Below are positions 56,956-59,672 of a stretch of 64,000 nt of DNA, piece by piece (the stretch's first letter is position 1; every line of letters begins with the position of its first letter). This stretch comes from Pseudaquabacterium pictum (lineage in GTDB: Bacteria; Pseudomonadota; Gammaproteobacteria; Burkholderiales; Burkholderiaceae_C), in assembly GCF_005403045.1 (NCBI RefSeq), contig NZ_BJCL01000007.1:124001-188000 (forward strand), in the 5' to 3' direction. The notes beneath the pieces are model-generated. The model did no database searches and was not told where the DNA came from. It saw only the letters and a program-made list of their open reading frames with translations. The translations under genes and the position numbers were made by a program.

Positions 56956-57651
56956 ATGCTGCACCTGCACATCGGCAACAAGAACTACTCATCCTGGTCG
57001 ATGCGGCCCTGGGTGCTGCTGAAGCACTTCGGGCTGCCGTTCCAGGAGGTGATGCACCGATTCGACAGCTTCGACGCGACCTCGCGGTTCAAGCAGGCGG
57101 TGACCCAGCTCAGCCCGGTGGGCAAGGTGCCGCTGCTCGTGCACGGCGACCTGGTGGTCTGGGACACGCTGGCGATCGCCGAGTACCTGGCCGAATACGC
57201 CGCCGAGCACTTCCCGGAGCACGCGCTGTGGCCACGCGACCAGGCCGCCCGCGCCCGTGCCCGCAGCCTGTGCGCCGAGATGCACAGCGGCTTCGGCGCG
57301 CTGCGCAACGCCTGCCCGATGAACATCGAGGCCAGCCTGCCCGAGGTCGGCGCCCGCCTGCTCGCCGAGCAGCCGGCGGTGGCGGCCGATCTGGCCCGCA
57401 TCACCGGCATGTGGCAGGCCGCGCTGGCCGTCAGCGGCGGGCCATTCCTGTTCGGCAGCTTCGGCATCGCCGATGCCTACTACGCCCCGGTGGTGGCCCG
57501 CCTGCGCACCTATGCCCTGCCGGTGCCCGCCGAGGTGGCCGCCTACATGCAACGGGTGTGGAGCAGCCCCGGTGTCGCCGCCTGGGTGACCGACGCCCTG
57601 GCCGAGCAGGAATTCCTGGACTTCGAGGAGCCGTACCGGAAGGGGCGTTGA
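56956..57651 (+). CDS. Glutathione S-transferase family protein
   Basis: A 231-residue cytosolic GST. Thioredoxin-like N-domain with NKNYSSWSMRPWVLLKHFGL (Ser catalytic region near residues 12-16) and SPVGKVPLLVHGDLVVWDT carrying the cis-Pro; helical C-domain from about residue 85, including FGSFGIADAYYAPVVARLRT. AAGGAG ribosome site upstream. Monocistronic; followed by a 419-base gap with two structured repeats. Substrate unknown. Confidence 0.9.
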   Translation: MLHLHIGNKNYSSWSMRPWVLLKHFGLPFQEVMHRFDSFDATSRFKQAVTQLSPVGKVPLLVHGDLVVWDTLAIAEYLAEYAAEHFPEHALWPRDQAARARARSLCAEMHSGFGALRNACPMNIEASLPEVGARLLAEQPAVAADLARITGMWQAALAVSGGPFLFGSFGIADAYYAPVVARLRTYALPVPAEVAAYMQRVWSSPGVAAWVTDALAEQEFLDFEEPYRKGR

Positions 57652-57696
57652 GGGCTCTGTGCGGACATGCCTTGATTGGCGCGAGGCCGAGGCCGC

Positions 57697-57785
57697 CGGG
57701 TACCTGGCCGACTCCATGTCCCCCGTCCTACACGCCGCAAGCGGCGAATAGGACTCCGCCTCTACTTCCGTCGGCCAGGTACCCG
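57697..57785. repeat. Structured repeat element A (hairpin core in a unique outer stem)
   Basis: An 89-bp element with perfect 16-bp outer arms CGGGTACCTGGCCGAC (57697-57712) and its complement (57770-57785). Inside is a 45-base core (57713-57757) that forms its own hairpin: GTCCTA (57725-57730), GCCGC-AA-GCGGC, TAGGAC (57749-57754). A 12-base pyrimidine-rich linker precedes the right arm. The identical core occurs inverted in element B. No coding role is apparent. Confidence 0.85.
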
Positions 57786-57849
57786 CCGTCCTCGTCCAGC
57801 CTCCGTCTCCGCGTGCGGCGAAGGGCTCAGTGGTGGCCGAGCGTCGGAT

Positions 57850-57941
57850 CGGGTGGGCCTGTTTTGCGGAGGTCAGGAGGAGTCCTATTCGCCGCTTGCG
57901 GCGTGTAGGACGGGGGACATGGAGCAAAACAGGCCCACCCG
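57850..57941. repeat. Structured repeat element B (same core inverted, different outer stem)
   Basis: A 92-bp element in opposite orientation to element A. Perfect 18-bp outer arms CGGGTGGGCCTGTTTTGC (57850-57867) and its complement (57924-57941). The core (57879-57923) equals the element A core on the other strand at all 45 positions, and an 11-base purine-rich linker (57868-57878) is the counterpart of A's pyrimidine-rich one. The 64 bases between A and B, and the 129 bases up to the next gene, hold no gene I can support. Confidence 0.85.
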
Positions 57942-58070
57942 AGCCGGCGCGATCGCTCAAATCAAACGACTGCCAAGAGCCCACAGCCGCGATCAGACTT
58001 CACCGGATGGCTTGGCCACCAGCGGCAGGCGACACTTCGGCCAACCCCCAACTGCCGCCTGGAGATCCGC

Positions 58071-59672
58071 ATGCCCCCCGCCGACGCTGCCGAACGCATC
58101 TCCGTCCGGGAGGCAGTGCACCGGCTGATGCGCCAGTTCGGCATGACCACGGTGTTCGGCAATCCGGGGTCGACCGAGCTGCCGCTGTTCCTCGACTTCC
58201 CGCCCGACTTCCGCTACGTGCTGGGCCTGCAGGAGGCGGTGGTGGTGGGCATGGCCGACGGCCATGCACAGGCCACCCGCAATGCCGCCTTCGTCAATCT
58301 GCACTCGGCCGCCGGCGTGGGCCATGCGATGGGCAACATCTTCACCGCGTTCAAGAACCGCACGCCGCTGGTCGTCACCGCGGGCCAGCAGGCACGCTCC
58401 ATCCTGCCGTTCGACCCCTTCCTGCACTCGGCCCAGGCCACCGAGCTGCCGAAACCGTACGTCAAGTGGAGCATCGAGCCTGCCCGTGCCGAAGATGTGC
58501 CGCTGGCCATCGCCCGGGCCTACCACGTGGCCATGTCGCCGCCCTGCGGGCCGGTGCTGGTGTCGATCCCCGCCGACGACTGGAACGTGCTGACCGAGCC
58601 GGTGCCAGTCCGCCAGGTCAGCCAACGCCTCCGGCCCGACCCCGCGCTGCTGGCCAGCGTGGGTGACCTTCTCGATGCCAGCGCCCGGCCGGCCTTCGTC
58701 ATCGGCGCCGCCGTCGACCGCGACGGCGCCTGGGACGCTGCCTTGGCCCTGGCCGAGCGCCACCAGGCCCGCGTCTTCGCCGCGCCGATGTCCGGCCGCT
58801 GCGGCTTCCCGGAAGACCACCCGCTGTTCGCCGGCCACCTGCCGGCCATGCGCGAGCGCATCGTCGCCCTGCTGGCCGGGCACGATGCCATCCTGGCCAT
58901 CGGCGCGCCGGCCTTCACCTACCACGTCGAGGGCAACGGCCCGCACCTGCCGCCCGGCGCCACGCTGGCGCAGCTGATCGACGACCCGGCCACCGCCGCC
59001 TGGACACCGCAGGGCACGTCGGTCGTCTGCAGCATCGGCCTGGGCCTGGCCGACCTGCTGGCCCGGCCGGCCCCGGCACCGCGCCAGCCGCCCGCGGCAC
59101 GCCCGCCGCGCGCCCGCCTGGCGCCGCCGCCGGCCGGCGAGCGCCTGCCGGTGGCCTGGGTGCTGCAGACCCTGGCCGAAGTGCGTGCACCCGACAGCAT
59201 CGTGGTGGAAGAAGCACCCAGCGCCCGCGCGCCGATGCAGGCCCACCTGCCGATGCTGCACAGCGGGACCTTCTACACCATGTGCAGCGGTGGCCTGGGC
59301 CACAGCCTGCCCGCCGCCGTGGGCGTGGCCCTGGCCCAACCGGGCGCGCGGGTGATCGCGCTGATCGGCGACGGCTCGGCGATGTACGCCATCCAGGCGC
59401 TGTGGAGCGCGGCCCAGCTGCGGCTGCCGATCACCGTGCTGATCCTGAACAACCGGCGCTATGCGGCGCTGCAGGACTTCGCGCCGGTGTTCGGCTACCC
59501 GCCCGGTGCCGAGGTGGCCGGCACCGCCCTGCCCGACCTCGACTTCGTCGCCCTGGCCGCCGGCCATGGCATGCCCGGCGTGCGCGTGGGCCAGGCCGAC
59601 CGCCTGGCCGATGTGCTGGCCAGTGCACTGCAGTCGACCGGGCCCGTGCTGGTGGAGATCGAGGTGGCTTGA
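58071..59672 (+). CDS. mdlC: Benzoylformate decarboxylase (thiamine-diphosphate enzyme)
   Basis: A 533-residue ThDP enzyme decarboxylating phenylglyoxylate to benzaldehyde in mandelate-type pathways. Catalytic residues match P. putida BFDC with an offset of 8: Ser34 in GNPGSTELP, Glu55 in LQEAVVVG, His78 in NLHSAAG, and a later His in FTYHVEGNG. The ThDP-binding GDGSAMYAIQALWSA motif is in the C-terminal third. The residue context also fits related 2-ketoacid decarboxylases, so the substrate is likely but not certain. No mandelate racemase or dehydrogenase gene is adjacent. The long upstream gap carries two structured repeats. Confidence 0.85.
   Translation: MPPADAAERISVREAVHRLMRQFGMTTVFGNPGSTELPLFLDFPPDFRYVLGLQEAVVVGMADGHAQATRNAAFVNLHSAAGVGHAMGNIFTAFKNRTPLVVTAGQQARSILPFDPFLHSAQATELPKPYVKWSIEPARAEDVPLAIARAYHVAMSPPCGPVLVSIPADDWNVLTEPVPVRQVSQRLRPDPALLASVGDLLDASARPAFVIGAAVDRDGAWDAALALAERHQARVFAAPMSGRCGFPEDHPLFAGHLPAMRERIVALLAGHDAILAIGAPAFTYHVEGNGPHLPPGATLAQLIDDPATAAWTPQGTSVVCSIGLGLADLLARPAPAPRQPPAARPPRARLAPPPAGERLPVAWVLQTLAEVRAPDSIVVEEAPSARAPMQAHLPMLHSGTFYTMCSGGLGHSLPAAVGVALAQPGARVIALIGDGSAMYAIQALWSAAQLRLPITVLILNNRRYAALQDFAPVFGYPPGAEVAGTALPDLDFVALAAGHGMPGVRVGQADRLADVLASALQSTGPVLVEIEVA

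What the first reader, a model, noticed from the sequence alone, without database searches (positions are those of the whole stretch)
57697..57941. Two inverted copies of a 45-base hairpin core, each locked in a different perfect outer stem
Seen directly: cores 57713-57757 and 57879-57923 are identical on opposite strands and fold on themselves (GTCCTA...TAGGAC around GCCGC-AA-GCGGC). Each is closed by its own perfect palindromic arms, 16 bp (CGGGTACCTGGCCGAC) and 18 bp (CGGGTGGGCCTGTTTTGC). The arms differ in sequence but keep full pairing, CGGGT ends and similar spacing, with an 11-12 base pyrimidine/purine linker on the same side. Conserved core plus compensated stem is what selection on secondary structure, or a hairpin-recognising mobile element (REPIN- or MITE-like), would leave. 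I know no named family with this architecture.
Basis: seen in the sequence. Interest (0 to 1): 0.75.

Follow-up and report, generated by a model that had tools for sequence, protein, structure and literature searches.

The report
Widespread strand-specific hairpin repeat in Burkholderiales
The two mirrored hairpins are one copy of a scattered, REPIN-like repeat whose stems keep pairing while their letters change; relatives of it sit between and even inside genes across a large bacterial family, and what moves it is still unknown.

Summary
The full element is 331 bp (57652-57982), starting at the base after a stop codon, with GGGCTC...GAGCCC ends and two inverted hairpins; the same genome holds 31 places with it. 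Across relatives the unit is: variable outer stem, conserved unpaired box, variable inner hairpin, second conserved box. Covariation is very strong. Outer-stem mismatches are strand-specific: G.T 223 against A.C 31 on the purine strand in 166 units, also where that strand is antisense to the host gene. At least 168 of 399 genomes, 76 of 141 genera of the family match. Close pairs are mostly inverted; units lie in-frame inside mpl, dnaE, mutL and putA homologues; in four genes one site carries either orientation. Best reading: a non-autonomous REPIN-like palindromic element acting as a folded purine strand. No cognate transposase was found: no unit lay beside the Y1 loci examined, and the one Y1 relative found in the window genome lacks its HUH motif. 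The published Betaproteobacterial repeat BRE (PMC3110155) may be the same family; undecidable here.

The parts
57652..57982 (.). whole element, 331 bp, with inverted ends; begins at the base after the stop codon of the upstream GST-like gene
   Evidence: ends GGGCTCTGTGCGG / CTGCCAAGAGCCC found by script; copies in the same genome share such ends
57652..57664 (+). left end GGGCTCTGTGCGG
57970..57982 (-). right end, inverted (GGGCTCTTGGCAG on the minus strand)
57697..57785 (-). hairpin A; its purine (folding) strand is the minus strand; outer arms 57697-57712 and 57770-57785
57712..57724 (-). conserved box 1 of hairpin A (reads CTCCATGTCCCCC on +, GGGGGACATGGAG on -)
   Evidence: family comparison
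57725..57753 (-). inner hairpin of A (variable within the family)
57754..57770 (-). conserved box 2 of hairpin A (CTCCGCCTCTACTTCCG on +)
57786..57849 (.). spacer between the two hairpins
57850..57941 (+). hairpin B, inverted relative to A; its purine (folding) strand is the plus strand; outer arms 57850-57867 and 57924-57941
57868..57882 (+). box 2 of hairpin B, purine strand (GGAGGTCAGGAGGAG); in other copies of this genome an IS110-like element is inserted within this box
57912..57924 (+). box 1 of hairpin B, purine strand (GGGGGACATGGAG)

Best explanation
It is one copy of a non-autonomous, REPIN-like palindromic repeat of Burkholderiales. The unit is a hairpin of about 90-105 nt: a covarying outer stem of about 16-25 bp, an asymmetric internal loop of two nearly constant purine stretches (box 2 then box 1, read on the purine strand), and a variable inner hairpin. 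Two units in inverted orientation make the window element, so each DNA strand carries one purine-strand hairpin. Shown: dispersal, covariation, strand specificity, inverted pairing, intergenic and in-frame genic positions, either orientation at the same genic site. Inferred: that the purine strand acts as a folded single-stranded DNA hairpin recognised in trans through its internal loop, which spread the copies; and that copies are now kept alike within a genome by recombination or gene conversion, since no intact cognate transposase was found in this genome.
For: 62 BLAST rows in the own genome are 31 places; 25 of the 31 have the core at up to 12 of 45 mismatches, 24 of them at up to 3. Covariation in 50 units: 22 of 24 pairs change on both sides, 241 cells against 71 shuffled, score 0.503 against 0.131, slid controls 0.08-0.11. 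Strand specificity: G.T 223 vs A.C 31 in 166 units (4 of 170 dropped for poor arms); 114 units more G.T, 10 fewer, 42 ties; one unit per arm cluster, 69 units: 103 vs 13. It holds in 7 of 7 units whose purine strand is antisense to the gene (12 vs 1 cells), which fits a DNA-level or pre-insertion constraint better than an mRNA one. Of 23 close pairs 21 are inverted with box 2 facing inward, 79-179 nt apart. Copies in one genome reach 98% identity over 189 nt, while the copy at the same GST site in sister genome G006 is 78% identical over 285 nt and inverted relative to the gene, though that gene is 90% identical.
Against: No transposase could be tied to it: no unit within up to about 1.5 kb of 64 Y1 loci or 21. 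The one Y1 relative found in the window genome reads EVL where HxH is expected. That protein is present in 21 of 21 genomes of the genus, also in the six with no unit match, so its presence says nothing. No target-site duplication (by eye) and no clean empty site. No GTAG or CGTC tag at the hairpin foot. G.T tolerance cannot by itself tell RNA from single-stranded DNA. Most units outside the window's genus were found by a pattern or model that contains the boxes, so part of their constancy is by selection; the copies found by BLAST are free of this.
Confidence: 0.55

Rival explanations
1. The purine strand is a structured RNA (a dispersed sRNA or mRNA element) whose internal loop binds a protein; the repeats spread as regulatory modules.
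For: G.U-type tolerance only on the purine strand; boxes nearly constant; of 20 units placed inside or between Pfam domains, 15 have the purine strand as mRNA sense; the possibly related BRE was found through a transcribed Bordetella locus (PMC3110155, abstract, passages and section 14 read).
Against: Five of those 20 lie with the pyrimidine strand in the mRNA, and in the 7 such units counted the G.T bias still follows the purine strand. Inverted pairs and in-frame positions in unrelated enzymes look like dispersal. No Rfam family at gathering score in 7 loci; in the window only MIR918 matches on both strands (62.5 and 56.3 bits, E 5.7e-10 and 1.3e-8, but threshold 268).
Confidence: 0.25
2. 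No function and no present mobility: old inverted repeats kept near-perfect by template switching at quasipalindromes and by gene conversion.
For: Changes on both sides are frequent (241 of 1200 cells) against 73 one-sided G.T cells in the 900 outer cells of the same 50 units, read on the purine strand; no clean empty sites or duplications found; within-genome homogenisation; no plasmid or phage match.
Against: Template switching alone does not explain the constancy of the unpaired boxes in BLAST-found copies of several species, nor the seven-fold strand bias of mismatches.
Confidence: 0.15
3. A MITE: a deletion derivative of a DNA transposon recognised by its ends GGGCTC...GAGCCC, the hairpins being passengers.
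For: Copies from 73 to 331 bp share these ends in the window genome.
Against: Ends are imperfect (12 of 20 matching in the window copy), no target-site duplication seen, no transposase seen in the stretches printed beside such ends at the 14 places looked at, and no such end within 260 bp of the units in the 14 loci of other genera tested.
Confidence: 0.05

Closest known systems
REP/BIME/REPIN sequences with TnpA-REP (RAYT); PMC3733652 (passages and section 15 read) and PMC6006769 (passages read)
   Same: Palindromic, many copies, inverted dimers, mostly intergenic and often just 3' of genes, also inside genes including DNA repair genes, targets of IS110-type elements
   Different: Unit about 90-105 nt with a conserved internal loop instead of a 20-40 bp palindrome; no GTAG/CGTC tag at the foot; no transposase gene flanked by units found
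BRE, Beta-proteobacterial repeat element, PMC3110155 (abstract, passages and section 14 read)
   Same: 75-91 bp in Bordetella, GC-rich, chromosomal only, in Alcaligenaceae, Comamonadaceae and one Rhodocyclaceae, some inside coding sequences
   Different: Cannot be compared: its sequence is not in the text held. It forms tandems with few bases between, whereas 21 of 23 close pairs here are inverted; section 14 describes no hairpin. No Bordetella, Polaromonas, Delftia or Acidovorax among the 80 titles shown of the 120 stretches, a scan that stopped at its limit
Rickettsia palindromic elements (RPE), as described in PMC3733652 (section 15 and passages)
   Same: Palindromes within the reading frames of unrelated proteins, including DnaE
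   Different: RPE-4 and RPE-6 are CGTC-tagged; sequences were not compared here
MITEs with terminal inverted repeats
   Same: Small, inverted ends
   Different: No target-site duplication seen, no parent transposon found

Membership tests
REP/REPIN (RAYT-mobilised) | multi-copy palindrome with inverted dimers | tested here: met
REP/REPIN (RAYT-mobilised) | GT[AG]G or CGTC tetranucleotide at the foot of the hairpin | tested here: not met
   by inspection: the foot of the outer stem is variable; GTA/GTC letters occur only inside box 2
REP/REPIN (RAYT-mobilised) | tnpA-REP gene flanked by the same units | tested here: not met
   none beside 64 Y1 loci or 21; overlapping sets, flanks up to about 1.5 kb
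REP/REPIN (RAYT-mobilised) | intact HUH-Y1 transposase in the carrying genome | tested here: not met
   window genome only: one relative found, HUH lost; other carriers do have Y1 proteins
BRE | sequence identity with the published BRE | not testable with these tools
   sequence not in the text held; no supplement look-ups allowed
BRE | about 75-91 bp, chromosomal, betaproteobacterial, some in coding sequences | tested here: met
   similar length (about 90-105 nt), mainly betaproteobacterial hosts and genic copies; no plasmid match
Rickettsia palindromic elements (as a kind) | in-frame palindrome inside conserved proteins | tested here: met
   20 units with Pfam matches spanning or on both sides, one of them (L181) partly by inference
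MITE | target-site duplication | tested here: not met
   21 rows printed, 4 of them artefacts; no direct repeat seen by eye in the other 17
known structured RNA (Rfam 15) | match at gathering score | tested here: not met
   0 matches in 7 loci; in window 57000-58600 only matches far below threshold

The most novel reading that the evidence does not exclude
A separate class of strand-specific mobile hairpin: recognition sits in a conserved purine internal loop inside a freely evolving stem, not in a foot tag, and is served by an unidentified recombinase other than RAYT. Units can be set or turned in place within essential genes (dnaE, mpl) without breaking the frame, in either orientation.
Probability: 0.3. 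Interest if true: 0.78.

Novelty: new variant of a known kind. Interest (0 to 1): 0.55.

Why it matters
It shows a hairpin family with very clear compensatory change and a strand-specific signature across a bacterial family, without the transposase that explains REPs. Finding what recognises the purine internal loop would name a new hairpin-handling enzyme or RNA-binding partner. The in-frame copies in DnaE, MutL and Mur ligases show how proteins absorb palindromes, and the G.T/A.C count is a simple general test for which strand of a palindrome folds.

Tried and rejected
RAYT as the mover: Y1_Tnp was sought in the genus (13 of 21 genomes, none in the own genome) and in 61 genomes around Comamonadaceae bacterium OS-4 (49 of 61). 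No unit lay beside the loci examined, and the protein is present with or without units. The one match (L377) is a unit locus that I had put in the set myself; the 64 others are Y1 loci, a few of them the same gene twice. A first test with the boxes, mismatches allowed, on 15 Y1 loci also found none.

Transposon with GGGCTC ends: the pattern search with one mismatch gave 59 forward and 75 reverse matches against 31 and 26 for the reversed control, listed in part. Of 17 such places fetched I looked at 14: genic chance matches, or short versions of 73 to about 124 bp, no transposase seen.

Empty sites: the putA site is filled in two genomes, half deleted in one, and has another linker in the rest of those aligned. 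In a 400-kb against 400-kb comparison each side had three units, after I dropped two rows whose arms do not pair; only two sites could be compared and both are old and blurred (itself returned no alignments). At the GST site G006 carries the element inverted, G010 shows only GGGCCC, and the contig of G002 ends inside an element. No clean empty site.

Plasmids and phages: no match of one 80-base unit in either collection nor of the window element in plasmids; one stretch of the viral collection holds the exact pattern.

Papers that looked near and were not: PMC2755013 (passages; CRISPR only) and PMC5217627 (passages and section 13; other motifs). PMC2267715 (passages) mentions new structured families in bordetellae; their sequences were not seen.

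Not tested: bias of the units to a replication strand. Of 182 units, 85 lie deep in long open frames of some strand. For L069-L188 the list holds 63 distinct frames; 56 were scanned with Pfam. Left out were five second frames and the two frames of one weak L134 unit. Frames from L421-L450 were not scanned.

Full report
What is there. The two hairpins are as described, and they are parts of a 331-bp element, 57652-57982, that begins at the base after the TGA of a glutathione-S-transferase-like gene (56956-57651) and ends before a thiamine-pyrophosphate-enzyme-like gene at 58071 (both names recalled from the sequence, not scanned). The ends are inverted, GGGCTC...GAGCCC, imperfect further in: 12 of the first 20 bases match. 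The whole element folds far better than shuffles.

Copies in the same genome. The query 57690-57950 gave 62 BLAST matches, which are 31 places. In 25 of these 31 the 45-base core is present at up to 12 mismatches, in 24 at up to 3; six places lack it. The arms fall into a few types (A-like CGGGTACCTGGCCGAC, B-like CGGG[AT]GGGCCTG[CT]TTTGC, and rarer ones) and by eye pair in nearly every copy whose two arms are in the assembly. Shorter versions down to 73 bp keep only the ends. One copy (L032) is a fusion of an A left half and a B left half at the inner palindrome, which is what loss of everything between the two cores would give.

The family. Lined up, the constant parts are box 1 (CTCCRTGTCCCCC) and box 2 (CTCCTCCTTTACCTGCG); the outer arms and the inner hairpin vary but pair. 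These units were found by their boxes, so their box constancy is partly by selection; copies found by BLAST in sister species show the same boxes around quite different inner hairpins, with some variants such as CTCCGTGTCATTCC. With a covariance model from 50 units, 168 of 399 genomes of the window's family have a match, in 76 of 141 genera (a lower bound, since 11 candidates per genome were scored with stricter filters). In the window's genus 15 of 21 genomes match, with 26 matches in the own genome. Of 61 genomes around Comamonadaceae bacterium OS-4, 33 match, up to 76 times, the number of candidates scored. The genus contains Ideonella sp. A 288: the same unit pair lies at C38 of G016 and of G083, and G083 is the genome of L134, titled Ideonella sp. 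A 288; this rests on equal coordinates.

Covariation. On 50 distinct units with a 14-nt inner part, 22 of 24 pairs have changes on both sides, 241 such cells against 71 in shuffles, no shuffle reaching any of the five measures, and slid structures fall to 31-49% paired against 90.4%. This was counted on the pyrimidine strand; in its 900 outer cells 73 read A.C or C.A there and 10 G.T or T.G, so on the purine strand 73 more cells are wobble pairs. Over 163 units the Watson-Crick fraction at outer positions 1-20 is 0.79-0.97 against 0.25-0.82 when arms are shuffled among units.

Which strand folds. A mismatch G.T on one strand is A.C on the other, so a strand that must fold tolerates G.T and avoids A.C. 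On the purine strand the outer stems of 166 units (of 170; four dropped for fewer than 9 of 16 pairs) have 223 G.T and 31 A.C cells; 114 units have more G.T, 10 fewer, 42 tie. It holds at 17 of 20 positions, is reversed at one and tied at two. With one unit per arm cluster (69 units): 103 against 13, 50 units more, 2 fewer, 17 ties. G.G and G.A mismatches show the same bias (37 against 6 C.C; 60 against 8 T.C; A.A and T.T 6 each). Units share ancestry, so the p-values overstate; the cluster count is the fairer one. The bias follows the unit, not the gene: in 7 units inside genes whose sense strand reads the pyrimidine strand (two of them, L133 and L165, with one-sided Pfam support), all 7 have more G.T on the purine strand. 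I read this as favouring single-stranded DNA, or a constraint met before insertion, over an mRNA element; an independent purine-strand RNA is not excluded.

Inside genes. Of 182 units in L069-L188 and L421-L450, 85 lie at least 120 bp deep in an open frame of 220 codons or more on some strand; many such frames are spurious in GC-rich DNA. I scanned 56 of the 63 distinct frames of L069-L188 with Pfam. In 20 units of 19 loci Pfam domains span the unit or lie on both sides: Mur ligase (Mpl-like; L070, L076, L099, L144, L152, L186), DnaE (L081, L105, L184), PutA (L122, L125), DsbA-like (L135, L136), a helicase-related protein with two units (L119), MutL (L166), CobB-like (L141), AraC-type regulators (L161, L181; for L181 the place of the second domain piece is inferred from L161), FtsX-type permease (L143). 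The other scanned frames have one-sided or no matches. In 15 of the 20 the mRNA reads the purine strand, in 5 the pyrimidine strand (strands). In four genes, mpl, dnaE, a histidine kinase (L101, L133; one-sided Pfam matches) and the AraC regulator, the same site by flanking sequence carries the unit in one orientation in one genome and the other in another. The GST site of the window shows the same: sister genome G006 has the element inverted, starting at the same base after the stop codon. Either units turn in place or the same site is hit repeatedly; these data cannot tell.

Inverted pairs. Among 147 units, 23 neighbours lie within 400 bp; 21 are inverted with box 2 inward, one outward, one in tandem. 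This is the REPIN architecture.

What moves it. A Y1/HUH-related protein of about 230 aa is found by a profile in 21 of 21 genomes of the genus, also in the six without a unit match, so its presence does not discriminate. In the window genome and in G010 the place of the HxH motif reads EVL, in G015 QVY; in eight others of the genus HVH is kept. My script did not recover the right frame in the remaining ones, so the motif there is unknown. Pfam does not recognise the window genome's protein at E 0.01. No unit lies within up to about 1.5 kb of 64 Y1 loci or of 21 (overlapping sets). PMC6006769 (passages read) reports Y1 subclasses not associated with REPs, which fits. So membership in the RAYT-mobilised REPs is not met here, though the element works like one in layout and placement.

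Literature. PMC3110155 (abstract, passages and section 14 read) describes BRE, a repeat of 75-91 bp with 69% GC in Bordetella, also counted in Comamonadaceae and Azoarcus, chromosomal, some within coding sequences, in tandems. It could be this family. Its sequence is not in the text held, and searches for its name or bprJ2 gave only that paper and one on BvgAS signalling (listing only). PMC3733652 (passages and section 15 read) shows that REPs within genes, also in DNA repair genes and in R. conorii DnaE, are known, and that REPs often lie within 20 bp of a gene's 3' end. Searches for Comamonadaceae or Burkholderiales palindromic repeats gave no description of this hairpin in the listings and passages seen. 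Hence new variant of a known kind, with the caution that BRE may be its first report.

Verdict. A real, widespread, structure-constrained dispersed repeat; REPIN-like in layout, purine-strand-specific in fold, with no known mover. Interest 0.55.

Noticed in passing
L025, L026, L027, L029, L033 (one end); L009, L010, L013, L030, L037 (other end): An IS110-like element (open frame starting VQSFLGVDVSKAKLDVA after a 233-bp non-coding left end; family recalled, a 39-aa piece of the other end had no Pfam match) is inserted within box 2 at the same point in at least five copies and breaks the assembly there. IS621 of the IS110 family is reported to target REP elements through a bridge RNA (PMC11208160, passages read).
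   Followed up: partly
L040 from about position 1743: What looks like the start of a group II intron (recalled) follows box 1 of a unit in G010; Rfam gave no match on this locus.
   Followed up: partly
L063 about 1350-1520: A second, different hairpin is nested inside box 1 of a unit in G002.
   Followed up: no
putA linker in L263-L267, L274, L275: Genomes without the unit carry a shared AT-rich linker (AGCTACTAAATC..ATAGCAA), perhaps another repeat at the same site; PMC5217627 (section 13) lists a 125-copy motif with ATAGCT in a Polaromonas, not compared.
   Followed up: no
G000:C15:90233-90907 (L392, L418): An open frame related to TnpA-REP that has lost the HUH histidines yet keeps the rest of the protein, also in G010: possibly a repurposed transposase.
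   Followed up: partly
window 57786-57849: The spacer between the two hairpins seems to hold a further small inverted repeat (CCNCC...GGTGG), seen by eye in several copies of the genus.
   Followed up: no
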